Assembly (NCBI GenBank): GCA_019787685.1
Contig: JAHNUO010000046.1
Span: forward strand, 62,001 to 126,000
Reading direction: 5' to 3'
Origin: Chiua virens
Lineage: Eukaryota > Basidiomycota > Agaricomycetes > Boletales > Boletaceae
Length of the DNA: 64,000 bases
Below are positions 46,276 through 57,459 of the stretch, piece after piece. The translations under genes were made by a program, and so were the position numbers. Every line of letters begins with the position of its first letter. The stretch's first letter is position 1. The notes beneath the pieces were generated by a model that saw only the letters and a list, made by a program, of their open reading frames with translations, ran no database searches and had not been told where the DNA came from.

Positions 46276-49200
46276 ATGAAAAAGTTCACAGCTCGCGCTC
46301 GTTTCCCATACTTTCGCTCCAACGCTCCCACGAGATCTTCCGCAGAATCTCTCGCAGAGCCACCCACAGAACCTCTCGCAGGACCGTCCACAGAATCTCT
46401 CGCAGCGCCACTCGCAGAACCACTCGCAGGACCTTCCGCCGAATTTCCTGAAGAATCATCCGCAGAATCTATTATGCAGATGGACGGTATTAGAGAGAAA
46501 TTCGGGCGCTTCAGAATTCTTATCATTGGCCGGGCCAATGCCGGGAAGACTACGATGCTCAAGCAAATCTGCAACTCTACGGACGAGCCAGTATTATATG
46601 ATGGAGATGGGAATGAGGTATGCTTAAATGAGACGTCTGTGATGATGTGGGCGCACTGATAGTCTGCGATCAGGTTGGTCTAGCACAGATCCAGGAATGC
46701 CGGGATGTGAGTTAAATGGTTACCGTGAAGTCCTTATCAGCAACATTTTCTAACACTTCTCAAGCGCGGAATGCATGATATCAAGAACGAATTGGTTTTT
46801 CGAAGCAACCCAAATTTTGTTTTTCACGACTCGCAGGGCTTCGAAGCTGGCAGTATAGAAGAGTTTGAACAGATGAAGGAGTTTGTTTCTGAGCGTGCAA
46901 AGACAGCACACCTCAAGAAGCGAATCCATGCTATCTGGTAATGAGAGATAGCAGCATTTATGTGACACTGACACTGACATGTGACCGAATAGGTACTGTA
47001 TTCCAATGGACCAGTACCACCGGGCTGTCTTGGCTGCCGAGGAAATGTTTTTCAATGAATGTGACACAGGGAGTGGTAAGTTCTCATGCATGTATGATGT
47101 CTTTTTTCTCATACTATTTGCAGTGCCTGTGATACTTGTATTCACAAAATGTGATGCACTTCTGATACAAGGCATGGTAGCCTTGACACCTGAGGAACAA
47201 CAGCTTCCCAAAGACAGAAGGATTGTAATTGGACAGCAGAATGCTGAAAGAATGCTGAAAAGGAATTCTACATGGGACAAGGTACAAAAGATGATGTATC
47301 CACCAAAGGCATGTGTGGAGTTGAGAGGTATGTATGTATACATGTCTCTCATGGTCAAACTGATTTTAAATGTACAAAGAACTGCACAAGTCAAATGAGG
47401 GGTGTTCATTTCTCTTGAAAAGGACTGTGGGGGCCTTAGATGAAGAAGCAATGCAGATGCTACTTGTGACTACACAACACACAAACATGTTGCTTTGCAT
47501 TGAGTATGCTCTTAGCAGGTAATTGATATGGAATTTATGAGCTATGGATTATAACTATTAATTTGTTTTATAGGGTCCTGATACCTTTCATTCAGGATAC
47601 ACATCAGAACAAAAAACCATCAACAGTCTCTGCTCAGCAGTTACTAGTGAAAGGAATTGCATCATGGTTTCCACATACTAAGGTGTGTGAATTTCTATGC
47701 AGTGCAAATGAGATCTATAGTGACAGAAATTCTTGTCCTATTCTTGAAAGGCAAGACATTCTTGTGACTGTAAATGAGTTCCCAACCTGAGGATGCTGAT
47801 ACATGCTTCTCTGTTCTTGCCCCTGTCCTGCCATTCATAGTTTGTAAGTGCTTTGATTGTGAATGGGTTTTGGAAGCCAGAAGGATAGTGATCCATGCCT
47901 CTCTGTCCTTGCCCTTGTCCTTTCATTCATAGGAAGTAGGTGCTCTGATTGTGAATGGATTTCCAGAAGAATGCTGATCCATGCCCCTCTGTCATTGCCT
48001 CTGTCCTGCCATTCATAGTATGTAAGTGTTCTGATTGTGAATGGGCTTCCAGAAAGATGCTGATCCATGCCTCTCTGTCCTTGCCCCTGTTCTGCCATTC
48101 ATAGCTTGTAAGTGCTCTGATTGTGAATGGGTATTGGACCAGAAGGATGCTGATCCATGTTGCTCTGTCCTTGCCCCTGTCCTGGTATTTATAGGGAGTA
48201 AGTACTCTGATTGTGAATGAACTTCTAGAAGGATCTTGATCCATGCCTCTATGTTCTTGCCCCTATCCTGCTATTCATAGCTTGTAAGTGCTCTGATTAT
48301 GAATGGGTTTTCAGAAGAATGCTAATGCATGCCCCTCTGTCCTTACCCTTGTCCTGCCATTCATAGCTTGTAAGTGCTCTGATTGTGAATGGGTCTCCAG
48401 AAGAATGGTGATCCATGCATCTCTGTCCTTGCCCCTATCCTGCCATTCATAGGTTGTAAGTGCTCTGATTGTGAATGGGCATTGGACCAGAAGGATGTTG
48501 ATACATGCCACTCTGTCCTTGCCCCTGTCCTGCTATTCCTAGGGAGTAAGTGCTCTGGTTGTAAACAGTCTTCCAGAAGAATGCTGATCCATGTTGCTCT
48601 GTCCATGCTCCTGTCCTGCCATTCATAGCTTGTAAGTGCTCTGATTGTGAATGTGCATTGGACCAGAAGGATGCTAATACATGCCCCTCTGTCCTTGCCC
48701 TGTCTTGTCATTCATAGGTTGTAAGTGCTTTGATTGTGAATGGGCTTCTAGAAATATCCTGATCCATGGCTCTCTGTTCTTACCCCTGTCCTGCTATTCA
48801 TAGCGAGTAAGTACTCTGATTGTGAATGAGCTTCCAGAAGGATACTGACCTATCACCCCCTTTGTCCATGCTCCTGTCCTGCCATTCATAGCAAGTAAGT
48901 GTTCTGATTGTGAATGGGGTTCTAGAAGGATGCTGATCCCCTCTGTCCTTGCCCCTGTCCTGCCATTTATAGCGAGTAAGTACTCTGGTTGTGAATGGGC
49001 TTTGGACCAGAAGAATGCTTATCCATGCCCCTCTGTCCTTGCCCTTGTCCTGCCATTCATAGCTTGTAAGTGCTCAGATTGTGAATAGAGTTCCAGAAGA
49101 ATGCTGATCCATGTCCTTCTGTCCTTGGCCTTTCTCTGCCATTCATAGCAAGTGAGTGCTCCAATTGTGAATGGGCTTCTAGAACAATGCTAATCCATTC

Positions 49201-52200
49201 CTCTCTGTCTTTGCCCCTGTCCTGCCATTCATAGGGAGTAAGTGCTCTGATTGTGAATGGGCTTCCAGAAGGATACTGACCTGTGTCTCTTTGTCCTTGC
49301 CCCTATTCTGGCATTCATAGCTTGTAAGTGCTTTGATTGTGAGTGGGCTTCCAGAAGGATACTGATCCATGTTGCTCTGTCCTTGCCCTTGTCCTGCCAT
49401 TGGTAGCAAGTAAGTGCTCTGATTGTGAATGAGCTTTGGACCAGAAGGATGCTGATCCATACCTCTTTGTCCTTGCCCTTATTCTGCTATTCATAGCTTG
49501 TAAGTGCTCTGATTATGAATGGGTTTTCAGAAGAATGCTAATGCATGCCCCTTTGTCCTTGCCCTTGTCCTGCCATTCATAGGTTGTAAGTGTTCTGATT
49601 GTGAATGGGCTTCTAGAAAAATGCTGATTAATGCCTTTCTTTCTTTACCCCTGTCTTACAATTCATAGGGAGTAAGTGCTCTGATTGTGAATAAGCTTTG
49701 GACCAGAAGATTGCTAATCCATGACTCTCTGTCCTTGCCCCTGTCCTGCCATGCATAGTATGTAAGTGCTCTGATTGTGAATAGGCTTCTAGAAGAATGC
49801 TGATCCATGACTCTCTGTCCTTGCCCCTGTCCTGCCATTCATAGCAAGTAAGTGCTCTAATTGTGAATGGGCTTTGGACCAGAAGGATGCTAATCCATGC
49901 CTCTCCATCCATGGCCCTGTCCTGCCATTCATAGGGAGTGAGTGCTCTGATTGTGAATAGGGTTCCAGAAGAATGCTAATCTATTTCTCTCTGTCCCTGT
50001 TCTGCCATTCATAGCAAGTAAGTGCTCTGATTGTAAATGGGCTTTCAGAGGGACACTGATTCATCCCCCTCTGTCCCTGCCCCTGTCCTGCTATCCATAG
50101 CTTGTAAGTGCTCTGGTTATGAATGGGCTTTGGACCAGAAGGATGCTGATGCATGCCCCTCTGTCCTTACCCCTGTCCTGCCATTCACAGCGAGTAAGTA
50201 CTCTGATTGTGAATAGGCTTTGGACCAGATCAATGCTGATCATGCCCCTCTGTCCTTGCCCCTGTTCTGCCATTGATAGGGAGTAAGTGCTCTGATTATG
50301 AATGGGCTTTCATAAAAATGTTAATCCATGCCCCTTTGTCCTTGCCCCTATTCTGACATTCATAGCTTGTAAGTGCTCTGATTGTAAATGGATATTGGAC
50401 CAGAAGGATACTAATCCATGCCTCTTTGTTATTATCCCTGTCCTGCCATTCATAGCGAGTAAGTGTTCTGATTGTACATTAATGGGCTTCTAGAAGAATG
50501 CTGATACATGCTTCTCTGTTCTTGCCCCTATTCTGCTATTCATAGGTTGTAAGTAACTCTGATTGTGAATGGGCATTGGACCAGAAGGATGCTGATACAT
50601 GCCTCTCTGTCCTTGCCCTTGTCCTGCTATTCATAGTTAGTAAGTGCTTTGATTGTGAATGGGCTTCTAGAAGGATGCTGACCTGTGCCTCTCTGTCCTT
50701 TCCCCCATCTTGCCTACACAGGGAGTAAGTTCTCTGATTGTGAATAGGTTTCCAGAAGGATGCTGATCCCCTGTGTTCTTGCTCCTGTCCTGCCATTTAT
50801 AGCTTGTAAGTGCTCTGATTGTGAATTGGCATTGGGCCAGAAGAGTGCTGACCTATACCCCTATGTCCTTTGCCCCTGTTCTGCAATTCATAGCGAGTAA
50901 GTGCTCTGATTGTGAATGGGATTCCAGAAGAATGCTGATCCATGTCTCTTTGTCCTTGCCCCTGTCCTGTGATTTACAGGGAGTAAGTGTTCTGATTGTG
51001 AATGGGCATTGGACTAGAAGAATGCTGATCCATGTCCCTCTGTTCTTGCCTCTATTCTGCTGTTCATAGTATGTAAGTGCTCTAATTGTCAATGGGCTTC
51101 TAAAATGCTAATCCATACCTCTCTGTCCTTGTCCCTGTCCTGCCATTCATAGCAAGTAAGTGCTCTGATTGTGAATGGGCTTCTAGAAGAATGCTGATTC
51201 ATGCCCCTGTTCTGCCATTAATAGGGAGTAAGTACTCTGATTATGAATGGGATTACTGTAAATGCTGATGCATGTCCCTCTGTCCTTCCCCCTGTCCTGC
51301 TATTCATAGCGAGTAAGTGCTCTGATTGTGAATGTGCTACTAAATGAATGCTGATCCATCCCTCTCTGTCCTCGCCCCTATCCTGCCATTCATAGCAAGT
51401 AAGTGCTCTAATTGTGAATAGGGTTCCAGAAAGATGCTGATCCCCTCTGTTCTTGGCCTTGTTCTGCTATTAATAGCGAGTAAGTGCTCTGATTGTGAAT
51501 GGGCTTTGGACCAGAAGAATGCTGATCTATGCCCCCCTATCCATGCCTCTCTGTTCTGGCATTCATAGGGAGTAAGTGCTCTGATTATGAATGGGCTTTG
51601 GGCCAAAAGAATGCTAATCCATGTCTCTCTGTCCTTGCTCTTATCTTGCCACTCATAGGGGGTAAGTGCTCTGCTTGTAAATGGGCTTCTAGAGGGATGC
51701 TGATCCATGTCTCTCTGTTCTTGCCCTTGTCCTGCCATTCATAGCTTGTAAGTGCTCTGATTATGAATTGGCATTGGATGAAAAGGATGCTAATCCATGC
51801 CTCTGTGTCCATGCCCCTCTGCTGCCATTCACAGGAAGTAAGTGCTCTAACTGTGAATGGGGTTCTACAAGAATACTGATACACACCCTTCTGTCCTTGT
51901 CCCTGTTCTGCCATTCATAGGGAGTAAGTGCTCTGATTGTGAATGGGCTTCCAGAAGGATGCTAATCTGTACTGCTTACCATAATTTCCTTTATGATGTC
52001 TATAATAGCTGGTATGTATTCACTATATTTAACTACATTGATTATTTTAATGTTATATAGGATGTGAGCATTCACATGTACTTTAATTTTCAAATATTTT
52101 AACTTTTCTTTATTTTCATTCATAGCGGGTATGATTAAATTTTAAATTTTAAATCATTTGACTCATCCTTTGTAGGAGGTTTGTACTGTGTTGGAGTTTT

Positions 52201-52754
52201 GCAGTACCAATCATAACATCAACTTCATAGATATTGCAGGCTTCTAGTGTATGTTGGTTCATTTTATTTTACTCTTTTTCAATTAATTTACAACATCCTC
52301 AGTCCCCTATTTCTGTTGAAGGTACACTAGCAAGAAAATGCACATTCATTGTGAGCACAATGATTCATAGGACCAGTCTGCCTAATATTTATTCTATAAT
52401 TTAGTCTCCTTTGGAAAATGGTAATGCATGGCACACAATACTTCATTTAGGCATTGGTTGGTTTTTAAATGTGAAATTCAGTAACCATCTCCATTAACAT
52501 TTGTAGGCATTACCATTATCCTGGAACATTCCTTCTTTTTACACCAGCAGGGTATTCAAGACCCAATTATGGTAGCAACCCAGCTTTATGAATCATCTGA
52601 AACAATGCACAAAGTCAAGAATGCAGTCTCTGAGCTTATTCCTCAATATGACTTTGGGAATGGAGAGAAAATGAAAGAGCTCCTTTTGCCTCTGATTTCT
52701 AAGAATCTTATTTGTAAGTCATCTGCCAATCTGGTCATTATAAACAACTTTTGA
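46276..52754 (+). CDS. P-loop GTPase (G-domain protein) whose C-terminal half is interrupted by a microexon array
   Basis: Fungal G-domain protein; cellular role unknown. Exons 1-7: 46276-46617, 46674-46706, 46765-46937, 46993-47075, 47124-47327, 47380-47518, 47574-47769, phase-consistent and ending in phase 0. N-terminus: Pro/Ser/Glu repeats (about residues 20-65). G domain: P-loop IIGRANAGKTTM (G1), VFHDSQGFEAGS (DxxG, G3), VPVILVFTKCDAL (TKxD, G4). Then comes the array of 52 triplet exons (see 47770-52178), and a C-terminal part reading ALVGITIILEHSFFLHQQ, then VATQLYESSETM and KMKELLLPLISK. A consistent path for the end is 52240-52248, 52303-52321, 52371-52375, 52451-52460, 52507-52754; these small exons are tentative. 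If all triplets are used the protein has 538 residues. Base composition is AT-richer than the neighbours from about 46.9 kb on. Confidence 0.75.
47770..52178 (+). repeat. Tandem array of intron-like units separated by single codons
   Basis: From 47770 to 52008 an 83- or 87-nt unit (a few 69-89) recurs about 48 times. Each unit starts with GTAAGT (variants GTAAAT first, GTAGGT second, GTGAGT at 49152 and 49938), carries GCTGATCC or GCTAATCC (a CTRAY branch site), then a pyrimidine-rich run, and ends ATTCATAG (TAG; CAG at 50190, 50721, 50979, 51834). Between an AG and the next GT there are always exactly three bases, e.g. CTT at 48105, GGA at 48195, GTT at 48453, CGA at 48804, CAA at 48892, TAT at 48019. 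Four further introns of unrelated sequence (52012-52060, 52064-52125, 52129-52175, and one from 52179) continue the pattern with CTG, GAT, CGG and GAG. All 52 triplets are sense codons in the incoming phase 0. It can be viewed as a minisatellite, but every unit is a complete spliceosomal intron by sequence. Confidence 0.85.
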
Positions 52755-54799: not shown

Positions 54800-57459
54800 A
54801 TGGCAGAGGAAGTCCCAGAACTACCAAAGCGCGACGTGCAAAACCATCTGCTCTTCGAATGTGCTTGGGAGGTCGTTAATAAGGTCGGCGGCATCTACAC
54901 CGTCATCAAAACCAAAGTGCCCGTCACCGTCGCAGAGTATGGCGATCGATACACCCTCATCGGCCCTCTGATGTACAAAACTGCCCCGATGGAAGTCGAG
55001 GCGCAAGAGCCCACCGATCCCGTGGTCGCAAGCACGCTAGATAGCATGCGCGTCCAGGGCGTTAAATGTCTGTACGGTCGATGGCTGATCGAGGGTGCTC
55101 CCCGCGTGCTCTTATTCGACACAGGCAGCGCATTCCATCGACTTGATGAGTGGAAGGGCGACCTCTGGAACGTGGCTGGCATCCCTTCCCCGCCGCATGA
55201 TACAGAGACCAACGATACGATCATCTTTGGCTATCTCGTGGCGTGGTTCCTTGGCGAGGTGCGTGATCCGTTGTCTCCCGTCCCACACCACACTGACCGG
55301 CCCCGGCCGATGATCGTGCAGTATGTGTCGCGACAGCTCCACACCGCTGTCGTTGCCCACTTTCATGAGTGGCAGGCTGGCGTCGCCATCCCTCTTTTCC
55401 GGAAACGACACGTTGATGTCACAACCGTGTTCACGACCCACGCTACCCTCCTCGGGCGCTACCTTTGTGCAGGGAGTGTCGACTTTTACAACAACCTCCA
55501 GTACTTTGATGTGGATCACGAAGCCGGCAAGCGGGGTATATACCACCGCTATTGCATCGAACGTGCTTCGGTACATTGCTCGGACGTGTTCACGACGGTA
55601 TCAGACATCACAGCATACGAGGCGGAGCATCTTTTGAAGCGCAAGCCAGACGGTATCTTACCCAATGGTCTCAACGTCGTTAAATTCCAGGCGATGCACG
55701 AGTTCCAGAATTTGCACGCTACCGCAAAAGCCAAGATACACGAATTTGTCCGAGGTCACTTTTATGGCCACTATGATTTCGACCTCGAGAATACTCTATA
55801 CGTCCGTCCATTGCGTTGTTATCTCGTACACATTGGTGAAATCGCTAACAGATGTTCATTGCTGGTCGATACGAGTATCGAAACAAGGGGGTGGACATGT
55901 TCATCGAGTCTCTCGCACGTGAGTATGTCCCGGTGATGTTATAGTTTTTTTTTGTTTTCTACGTTACCGACAGGTCTTAACTACCGCCTTCAACAATCTG
56001 GCTCGAAGACGACAATTGTTGCGTTCATCATCATGCCGGCTGCCACAAACTCCTACACGGTTGACGCGCTCAAAGGACAAGCGGCTATGAAACAATTGAA
56101 GGATACGGTGACTGAAATACAGCACCGAATCGGTGCTCGTTTGTTCGAACATGCTGCACGGTATAATGGCGGGTATGTGTTGTCAATGATAGACCCTGGA
56201 TAGCTCGGAGGTAATCTTATTCTTGATCACATAGGGATGGGAAGATGAACCTTCAACCAGAGAATCTCTTGTCCGCCGAGGACCAGGTGCTGCTGAAGCG
56301 GCGGATATTTGCGCTCAAGCGTGCCACATTCCCTCCGATCGTGACGCACAACATGGCGGATGATGCGAACGACCCGGTTTTGAACCAACTCCGCCGCGTC
56401 AAATTGTTCAATGCCCCATCTGACAGGGTCAAAGTGATTTTCCACCCAGATTTCTTGAATTCGAACAACCCGATCTTGGGTCTGGACTATGAGGAGTTCG
56501 TGCGAGGGTGTCACCTCGGCGTGTTCCCGAGCTACTACGAGCCATGGGGCTACACACCAGCAGAGTGTACAGTCGTGAGTAATGCGTTCGTTCTGAGGAT
56601 GACAAAGTGGCTGACTGTGAGATGAGATGGGTGTCCCGTCTGTCACCACCAATTTATCAGGGTTCGGGTGTTTCATGCAGGATCTTATCGAACGGCCCGA
56701 GGACGAAGGCTGTTACATTGTCGATCGGCGAATGCAGTCTATCGAGGACTCTATGAATAACCTGACCGACTTCATGTTCCAATTCGCTAATAAGACGCGA
56801 CGACAGCGGATTAACCAACGTAACAAGGTGGAGCGATTGAGTCCACTGTTGGACTGGAAGAACCTTGGCGTGGAGTACTCCAAATCGAGGCAGTTGGCGT
56901 TAAGGCGGGCGTATCCTGATGCATTCCTCAATGCGAACGGTGAAATTGATGACGAAGATGCTGCCTGGTTTGGAGCAAGCATTGAGCGATTCTTGCCCTC
57001 GGCTCCTGCCAGCCCTCGTTTGCGGATGTCCGGGGTAGCCACACCAGGAGACATGGGGACGTTGACGGAGGAGGTGAGCTGGCAAGGGGTGTAGAAGGCA
57101 AATACTGACTCTACACCCCCGCTTGTCAGATGCAGCGACTGAACACGAGCGATTACCGTGGGTACAATTGGCCCGGGTCGGCCGAAGATGAAGAAGACGG
57201 GTATCCGTTGTGAGTGACTGTCCTTATCAAGGTTAAATCACCCACTGATCATCACTGTCCCGCGTGTCACGATGCCGGTCACAGCCCGCTGGTGATGAAG
57301 GTCCGTTCACGCTCGGGGTCCGTGCACTCTGGGGTAAGCACACCCGGTGGAGGTGCATTCAAGAGTTTGAGCGAAGGGGACCTTCAAAAGGCGGACGCGG
57401 CACTGAGCCAGGTGAACGGGGCGGCTACCCCAGCAGAGCCAGAGGCTGTGAGAATGTAA
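54800..57459 (+). CDS. GSY1: Glycogen synthase (GT3)
   Basis: Transfers glucose from UDP-glucose to growing glycogen. Exons: 54800-55258, 55322-55801, 55852-55918, 55974-56172, 56235-56574, 56627-57073, 57130-57209, 57285-57459; 748 residues. Motifs: [17 protein letters not shown] at the N-terminus (UDP-glucose loop), [42 protein letters not shown], and the C-terminal catalytic loop [17 protein letters not shown] followed by [13 protein letters not shown], then YIVDRR. C-terminal Ser-rich tail ([28 protein letters not shown]) is where yeast/animal enzymes are inhibited by phosphorylation. The first intron is 63 nt and in frame, so reading through it would add 21 residues not found in the family. 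Confidence 0.96.

What the first reader, a model, noticed from the sequence alone, without database searches (positions are those of the whole stretch)
47770..52178. About 52 consecutive codon-sized (3-nt) microexons between complete introns in one GTPase gene
Directly seen: 52 times in a row an intron-like acceptor (TAG or CAG) is followed by exactly three bases and then a GT donor, almost always GTAAGT. Exon 7 (ends 47769) leaves phase 0, so each triplet would be one whole codon, and none is a stop. The GTPase C-terminal sequence resumes downstream (ALVGITIILEHSFF at about 52451-52540). Because every exon is symmetric, any subset could be spliced in without a frameshift, giving a huge number of in-frame isoforms. 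Known parallels are microexon genes of schistosomes and single cases of 1-3 nt exons; a run of tens of 3-nt exons is not something I know of. The alternative is one 4.4-kb intron grown by tandem amplification of an intron, which would itself be remarkable next to host introns of about 50 nt.
Basis: partly seen in the sequence, partly recalled or inferred. Interest (0 to 1): 0.95.

Follow-up and report, generated by a model that had tools for sequence, protein, structure and literature searches.

The report
Arrays of one-codon exons in GTPases
In a bolete mushroom, one family of GTPase genes appears to spell part of its protein one codon per exon, each codon separated by a complete small intron, which would be the most finely split protein-coding sequence known to me and would let codons be reshuffled without breaking the reading frame.

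Summary
Window 47841-51923 holds 48 consecutive 3-nt exon candidates between complete introns, and 4 more follow at 52009-52178: 52 in all. The exon before them ends at 47682, not 47769, still in phase 0. The genome is that of the bolete Chiua virens. The same anatomy occurs in a GTPase gene family: 49 of 49 array positions checked lie upstream of a GTPase last exon, same strand. Genome-wide, neighbouring GTAAGT donors enclose exactly 3 nt 1543 times (control 5), against 27 times for 0-2 and 4-12 nt. In 33 loci 945 triplets hold no stop (64.6 expected); genome-wide TAA/TGA occurs 4 times, CAA/CGA 199. The spliced model is one 520-aa frame. So the triplets are most likely translated, one codon per exon. 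Introns within an array can be identical while triplets stay diverse, and triplet order is scrambled between paralogs with 97-99% identical flanks: recombination through introns may reshuffle codons in frame. No cDNA was available: splicing itself is inferred. I found no description in the papers searched.

The parts
46276..47682 (+). GTPase gene, exons 1-7 (46276-46617, 46674-46706, 46765-46937, 46993-47075, 47124-47327, 47380-47518, 47574-47682); ends ..ASWFPHTK in phase 0
   Evidence: model; Pfam MMR_HSR1 match just below its cut-off; homologues; exon end in paralogs
47683..47840 (+). first array intron, 158 nt; its last 51 bases match the array unit (92%), so it seems to hold a decayed first unit
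47841..51923 (+). array of 48 three-nt exon candidates separated by 47 introns (83 nt in 20, 87 nt in 12, others 69-89); reads FEYLGLLVGLVRQRLQGLQLVGYQGQLRGLRVLGLRGYQGRQRGGLEG
52009..52011 (+). 3-nt exon candidate CTG, behind the 86-bp repeat (CTG/CTT/ATG/TTT in paralogs)
52061..52063 (+). 3-nt exon candidate GAT, conserved in most paralogs where found
52126..52128 (+). 3-nt exon candidate CGG (GAG/AAG/ATG/CAG/ACG/CAT in paralogs)
52176..52178 (+). 3-nt exon candidate GAG, conserved in most paralogs where found
52231..52248 (+). 18-nt exon ILQASS
52303..52350 (+). 48-nt exon SPISVEGTLARKCTFI
52451..52460 (+). 10-nt exon ALV+1 nt
52507..52754 (+). last exon, ..ITIILEHSFFLHQQ.. to the stop

Best explanation
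In a family of GTPase genes of Chiua virens, the linker between the GTPase domain and a conserved C-terminal segment is encoded one codon per exon. Each array unit is a complete spliceosomal intron (strong donor, a CTRAT branch-site-like motif, YAG acceptor) plus one codon. Inferred: each intron is removed by intron definition, leaving one codon; skipping any number of 3-nt units keeps the frame. Because a unit is self-removing and whole-codon sized, unequal exchange and short-tract conversion between identical introns can add, delete and reorder codons without frameshift, so the peptide is reshuffled quickly while introns are homogenised; selection removes stops and, I think, keeps the residue mix from collapsing. 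When introns diverge (as in the window) the array freezes. Shown: anatomy, spacing, stop avoidance, phase, decoupling of introns and codons. Inferred: splicing, translation, recombination as the cause, any benefit of diversity.
For: Spacing: 1543 unit pairs with exactly 3 nt, control 5; 6 with 0-2, 21 with 4-12; 795 of 799 unit starts have YAGNNN before them. Translation: 0 stops in 945 triplets of 33 loci, 64.6 expected from base composition by position, while the splice-equivalent CAA+CGA number 150 and GAA+GGA 257; genome-wide TRA 4, CRA 199; concatenated triplets have 0 of 944 stops in frame 0, 3 of 912 in frame +1, 56 of 912 in frame +2. Splicing constraint: of 686 junctions found by intron body rather than by splice sites, 677 have AG-3 nt-GT; the nine others are one GC donor, two off-length units of L032 each listed twice, and four search offsets; triplets containing GT are 25 against 220.8 expected, those ending TA 6 against 123.8. 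Function: 22 of 24 long loci keep an open frame from start codon to WFPH or its variant; 14 of 24 also keep every downstream exon with AG/GT borders and an open frame, 6 more are open with exons unmapped or weak or off-length units left out. Relatives: P0124 (438 aa on a 1529-nt contig, so probably cDNA; inference) reads WFPHSQ, a variable stretch, then LDRA where W has CTG-GAT-CGG-GAG = LDRE. Decoupling: triplet diversity is 0.46-0.67 in the 25 distinct arrays of 19 or more units (W's copy L009 set aside), whether intron diversity is 0.0000 (L021, 26 identical introns) or 0.18 (W, L027); 86 identical introns in four genes are followed by 11 kinds of triplet. Scrambling: 300 array pairs show no shared order (mean z 0.04 against 12 shuffles each, one above 3) although flanks of e.g. 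L018/L024 are 98.4 and 99.3% identical; W and L009, with diverged introns, differ at 25 of 4092 array bases and at 0 of 48 triplets.
Against: No RNA evidence at all. Counts are not independent: paralogs share descent and some copies may be allelic haplotigs. Four TAA/TGA triplets exist in genes not fetched. In the 25 arrays five sites with other spacing were seen (L019 11 nt, L028 0, L029 14, L032 2 and 5); the L032 pair is a net frameshift unless skipped, and L030 has one ambiguous short unit. L039 seems frameshifted in an ordinary exon (by eye). Frame +1 has almost no stops either (3 of 912), so the frame test separates frame 0 well only from frame +2. Annotated C. virens proteins P0121-P0123 stop before the array. 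Branch-site conservation is modest evidence: other A and T positions are also slow. Short-tract conversion with selection should, I expected, leave more intron variants near the triplets; that was not seen.
Confidence: 0.8

Rival explanations
1. The array is one 4.3-kb intron (or a skipped block) grown by tandem amplification; triplets are never or hardly ever in the mRNA.
For: Tandem 86-bp repeat; annotated proteins P0121-P0123 end before it; some relatives have short linkers, e.g. P0202 and P0174.
Against: Loss of TAA/TGA with CAA/CGA common, 3-nt spacing kept while introns diverge (0.18 in W and L027, more in L031 and L035 with fewer same-length introns) and vary in length, splice sites kept in 677 of 686 junctions, 3-nt exon candidates also between introns outside the repeat.
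Confidence: 0.12
2. Stochastic inclusion: most mRNAs carry a random subset of the codons, and isoform diversity (as proposed for schistosome micro-exon genes) is the function. This is a form of the best explanation, not exclusive of it.
For: Units symmetric and phase 0; any skip keeps the frame; even the L032 off-length pair would be harmless if skipped.
Against: Untested; uniform strong donors argue for regular splicing (45 of 48 GTAAGT in the window), and diversity between genes alone would explain varied peptides.
Confidence: 0.3
3. Mobile introner-like intron: the 83-nt intron is a transposing element that inserts between codons and the 3 nt are a target-site duplication or scar.
For: Many identical copies in several genes (81 in five, 86 in four).
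Against: 795 of 799 exact unit starts sit behind YAGNNN and 49 of 49 array positions checked lie in one gene family upstream of the same exon; neighbouring identical triplets are not in excess in any of 26 arrays, as a duplication would give.
Confidence: 0.1
4. Targeted hypermutation of the triplets makes the diversity.
For: Triplets vary while introns are identical.
Against: W and L009: 25 changes in 4092 bases, none in 48 triplets (one pair only, and an array with diverged introns); triplets come from a small alphabet (36 kinds in 945, median 8 kinds per array).
Confidence: 0.07

Closest known systems
Schistosoma micro-exon genes (MEGs)
   Same: Runs of short symmetric exons in a gene family; skipping keeps the frame (passages of PMC8293314: exons of 36 bp or less, 72 genes, 25 families).
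   Different: Here the array exons are 3 nt, up to 58 strict units in a fetched array (L027), introns are tandem copies of about 83 nt, the protein is a GTPase, and alternative splicing is not shown.
Single 3-nt microexons of animals (e.g. mouse Ncam)
   Same: An exon of one codon length (passage of PMC8042270).
   Different: Single cases, not tandem arrays; reported there from transcripts, not shown here.
Introner elements / introner-like elements of algae and fungi (recalled)
   Same: Many near-identical spliceosomal introns.
   Different: Not seen outside one place of one gene family here.
Recursive splicing with zero-length exons (recalled)
   Same: Acceptor next to donor inside what could be one long intron.
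   Different: Spacing is 3 nt and the 3 nt behave as sense codons; 0-2 nt spacing occurs 6 times.
Coding minisatellites in fungal adhesins or repeat-domain immune receptors (recalled)
   Same: Tandem units reshuffled in whole-codon steps.
   Different: There the unit is coding; here about 83 of 86 bases are intron and one codon is the cargo.

Membership tests
Microexon (exon of 30 nt or less, included in mRNA) | length | tested here: met
   3 nt in 48 array units plus 4
Microexon (exon of 30 nt or less, included in mRNA) | inclusion in spliced mRNA | not testable with these tools
   no RNA data of this species; indirect support from stop avoidance
Schistosome-type micro-exon gene | many short symmetric exons in one gene | tested here: met
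   as exon candidates
Schistosome-type micro-exon gene | alternative splicing to variant proteins | not testable with these tools
   no cDNA
Schistosome-type micro-exon gene | homology to schistosome MEG proteins | tested here: not met
   the 120 best of 240 hits listed carry fungal names (hypothetical, G-domain or GTP-binding proteins) or none; no schistosome among those listed
Introner element | similar introns at many unrelated positions or genes | tested here: not met
   795 of 799 exact unit starts in array context; 49 of 49 array positions checked in one family
Introner element | target-site duplications or terminal inverted repeats | not tested
   only indirectly: no excess of equal neighbouring triplets
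Recursive splice site (ratchet point) | acceptor directly abutting donor (0 nt) | tested here: not met
   6 cases of 0-2 nt against 1543 of 3 nt
MMR_HSR1-type GTPase (PF01926) | Pfam match above the curated cut-off | tested here: inconclusive
   20.7 bits against a cut-off of 21.9 over residues 80-219; several homologues listed carry PF01926

The most novel reading that the evidence does not exclude
A protein segment is encoded one codon per exon in some 50-70 paralogous gene copies, and the near-identical introns serve as homology arms through which single codons are exchanged and reordered between genes: a frame-proof, codon-level shuffling system that generates a hypervariable peptide repertoire on a GTPase, perhaps for self/non-self or interaction specificity.
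Probability: 0.35. Interest if true: 1.

Novelty: categorically new. Interest (0 to 1): 0.93.

Why it matters
If the triplets are spliced in, this sets a new lower limit for the fragmentation of a protein-coding sequence (dozens of consecutive one-codon exons, as opposed to isolated cases), shows that a spliceosome can handle about 50 exons of 3 nt in one transcript, presumably by intron definition, and offers a natural case in which introns carry recombination so that codons can be shuffled without coding damage. It makes the old question whether introns promote exchange of coding modules testable at the scale of one codon. It also warns that gene predictors truncate such genes: the C. virens models P0121-P0123 end before the array.

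Tried and rejected
Paper searches that gave nothing of this kind: microexon arrays, tandem introns, micro-exon genes, introners; C. virens genome: two papers, seen only as listing. The unit was not found in viral contigs or genome contigs, which are not fungal collections. Considered and rejected: a dispersed satellite (the 49 array positions checked are sense-oriented inside one gene family); target-site duplications; duplication of blocks of several units (repeated three-letter words exceed chance at p<0.05 only in L010 and L016 of 26 arrays); whole-unit inheritance of intron plus codon (8 arrays tested: association of the intron haplotype with the triplet before it at p<0.05 in L011, L017 and L025, with the triplet after it in none; equal haplotypes are clustered at p<0.05 in L010, L024 and L025, so some unit copying does happen); hypermutation. 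A toy simulation with parameters of my own choosing: neutral whole-unit copying gave intron diversity 0.007 and triplet heterozygosity 0.00; neutral short tracts 0.029 and 0.41; short tracts with selection on composition 0.033 and 0.77, order scrambled; whole units with selection 0.130 and 0.75; young arrays have heterozygosity 0.73-0.87. It illustrates that selection with short tracts could do it, but it does not reach the low intron diversity of the youngest arrays and is no fit. A loose core-based search reported one TAA triplet in L031; one search shows it was read out of register (the unit is GAA-GTAAGT). The manual model of L039 was dropped because an ordinary exon seems frameshifted.
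Full report
What is there. The window is contig C46:62001-126000 of a 48.3-Mb genome in 136 contigs. Proteins found with the spliced model lie on contigs of exactly the lengths of C9, C13, C8, C2 and C10 and are named Chiua virens, a bolete of the family Boletaceae. Between 47841 and 51923 there are 48 triplets, each behind TAG or CAG and before GT; 45 of the 48 donors are GTAAGT. Four more triplets (CTG, GAT, CGG, GAG) follow at 52009-52178. The intron before CTG shares its first 40 bases with the array unit; the three between the four triplets resemble neither the unit nor each other.

Gene model. Joining seven ordinary exons (46276-47682), the 52 triplets and exons of 18, 48, 10 and 248 nt gives one open frame of 520 codons to a stop at 52754. 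The exon before the array ends at 47682 rather than 47769: in the paralogs the stretch behind WFPH.. has in-frame stops in 29 of 32 readable loci, 27 if the acceptor's own TAG is not counted. In 31 of 34 loci the exon end could be placed automatically, and there it ends a codon. The protein is GTPase-like (GRANAGKTT P-loop, recalled motif; MMR_HSR1 at 20.7 bits, just below the cut-off of 21.9) with relatives in many Boletales.

A family, not one gene. The last exon has 72 matches in the genome. Array positions visible or fetched give 49 arrays, and 49 of 49 have a GTPase last exon within 8 kb downstream on the same strand; listings were cut, so this is not a census. A further run of units at C3:645-654 kb lies in the gene with last exon C3:644600 and was not in that count. 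Some copies may be allelic haplotigs. I fetched 33 stretches around family members (24 of about 10 kb and 9 smaller): 33 of 33 hold the pattern, from one unit (L033) to 58 strict units (L027).

Spacing. GTAAGT followed within 60-90 nt by TAG, exactly three bases and GTAAGT occurs 1543 times (847+696) against 5 for the reversed pattern. With 0-2 bases it occurs 6 times, with 4-12 bases 21 times; the reversed controls of these two, 67 and 986, are larger, I think because the reversed pattern fits the array unit by accident. Of 799 exact copies of the 23-nt unit start, 795 have YAGNNN before them. Junctions found by the intron body instead of by splice sites: 677 of 686 have AG-3-GT; the rest are one GC donor, two off-length units in L032 (5 and 2 nt, each listed twice) and four search offsets. 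Units missed by the strict pattern have weaker donors (GTAAAT, GTATGT, GTAAGC and others) and again 3 nt, except L032 and one ambiguous unit in L030. In one search five sites of other spacing were seen in 25 arrays (L019, L028, L029 one each, L032 two).

Are the triplets codons? In 33 loci (W and L010-L041; the near-copy L009 left out) 945 triplets of 36 kinds contain no TAA, TAG or TGA; 64.6 would be expected from the base composition of the three positions. TAA and TGA should not be avoided for splicing reasons, since CAA, GAA, CGA and GGA, which make the same junctions, are among the commonest. Genome-wide TRA occurs 4 times and CRA 199 times; the four are in genes not fetched, so stops are rare, not absent (an earlier TAA-only search with gaps of 60-85 found none). 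Concatenated, the triplets have 0 of 944 stops in frame 0, 3 of 912 in frame +1 and 56 of 912 in frame +2, the last in 25 of 32 arrays. Triplets that would create a second GT, or TAG at the donor, are also rare (25 against 220.8; 6 against 123.8), as expected if both junctions are used. Nearly all triplets end in A or T (924 of 945) while codons of the ordinary exons 1-7 of the window gene do not (196 of 361).

Are the genes alive? Projecting the exon borders of W onto 24 long loci (L009-L032), 22 keep an open frame from the start codon to the WFPH exon end (315-491 codons, differing in whole codons), and 14 keep all downstream exons with AG/GT borders and an open frame to the stop; 6 more (L012, L013, L014, L020, L029, L032) are open with one to three exons unmapped or weak, or with off-length units left out; 4 could not be judged (L026, where the frame is lost at a mis-mapped 10-nt exon, L027, L030, L031). 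Six relatives' proteins from short contigs (P0124, P0133, P0134, P0188, P0197, P0237), which I take to be cDNA, have a variable stretch between WFPH/WFPQ and the C-terminal segment; P0124 has LDRA where W reads CTG-GAT-CGG-GAG = LDRE. P0202 and P0174, gene models of Suillus, have a much shorter one.

Introns and codons evolve apart. Within arrays the mean pairwise difference of introns runs from 0.0000 (L021: 26 identical introns) to 0.18 in W and L027, and more where few introns share a length (L031 0.32, L035 0.26), yet that of triplets is 0.46-0.67 in all 25 distinct arrays of 19 or more units. One 83-nt intron occurs 86 times in four genes and is followed by 11 kinds of triplet; another 81 times in five genes. 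Triplet order is not shared: 300 pairs of arrays have a mean z of 0.04 against 12 shuffles each, one above 3, although flanks of pairs such as L018/L024 are 98.4% (up) and 99.3% (down) identical and L013/L014 96.3% and 98.8% (best BLAST stretches). Arrays differ in composition (29 arrays, chi-square 1096, 280 degrees of freedom). In contrast W and its near-copy L009, whose introns are diverged, differ at 25 of 4092 array bases and at none of 48 triplets. So triplets do not look simply hypermutable; they are scrambled where introns are alike and, in the one pair that could be compared, frozen where they are not. Homologous recombination through identical introns, with selection against stops and against one-sided composition, is the simplest account; a toy simulation shows part of it is possible but does not reach the observed intron identity, and the surplus of intron variants near triplets that I expected was not seen.

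What it works like and what it is. It works like a micro-exon gene (symmetric exons, skips harmless) and like a coding minisatellite (whole-codon shuffling), but by the tests made it is a member of neither these nor the introners: no schistosome protein among the hits listed, no dispersed copies seen, zero-length spacing practically absent. I found no description in the papers searched (of these I saw listings and abstract beginnings, and passages of PMC8042270 and PMC8293314). The library lacks most subscription journals and preprints.

Limits. There is no RNA evidence. Paralogs are related, so counts overstate independence. Recursive splicing, introners and minisatellites are named from memory.

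Noticed in passing
window 46339-46467: Exon 1 of the GTPase carries a 12/48-bp coding tandem repeat (AEPPTEPLAEPS-like); the part up to WFPH varies from 315 to 491 codons between the 22 loci judged, in whole codons.
   Followed up: partly
L009 (C9:1019500-1029400): Near-identical copy of the window gene (flanks 99.7%): haplotig or recent segmental duplication.
   Followed up: partly
L018/L020 (C27) and L021/L022 (C6): Two GTPase genes about 20 kb apart occur collinearly on C27 and C6, again haplotig or segmental duplication; their arrays differ in triplet order.
   Followed up: partly
L032, about 4663 and 4751: Neighbouring units with 5-nt (TACAT) and 2-nt (TA) exon candidates, net +1 frame.
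   Followed up: partly
C10:1118582-1136575 of G000: A family member whose GTPase exons and last exon lie about 17 kb apart; not fetched.
   Followed up: no
C3:644600-655288 of G000: A family gene of about 10 kb with array units near both ends (C3:645370 and C3:652901-654130); not fetched.
   Followed up: no
L027, about 9159: A 3-nt exon candidate followed by a GC donor (GCAAGT) inside an array.
   Followed up: no
window 54800-55936: Glycogen synthase fragment; best hits 76-83% identical, unnamed metagenome proteins and basidiomycetes such as Tulasnella.
   Followed up: no
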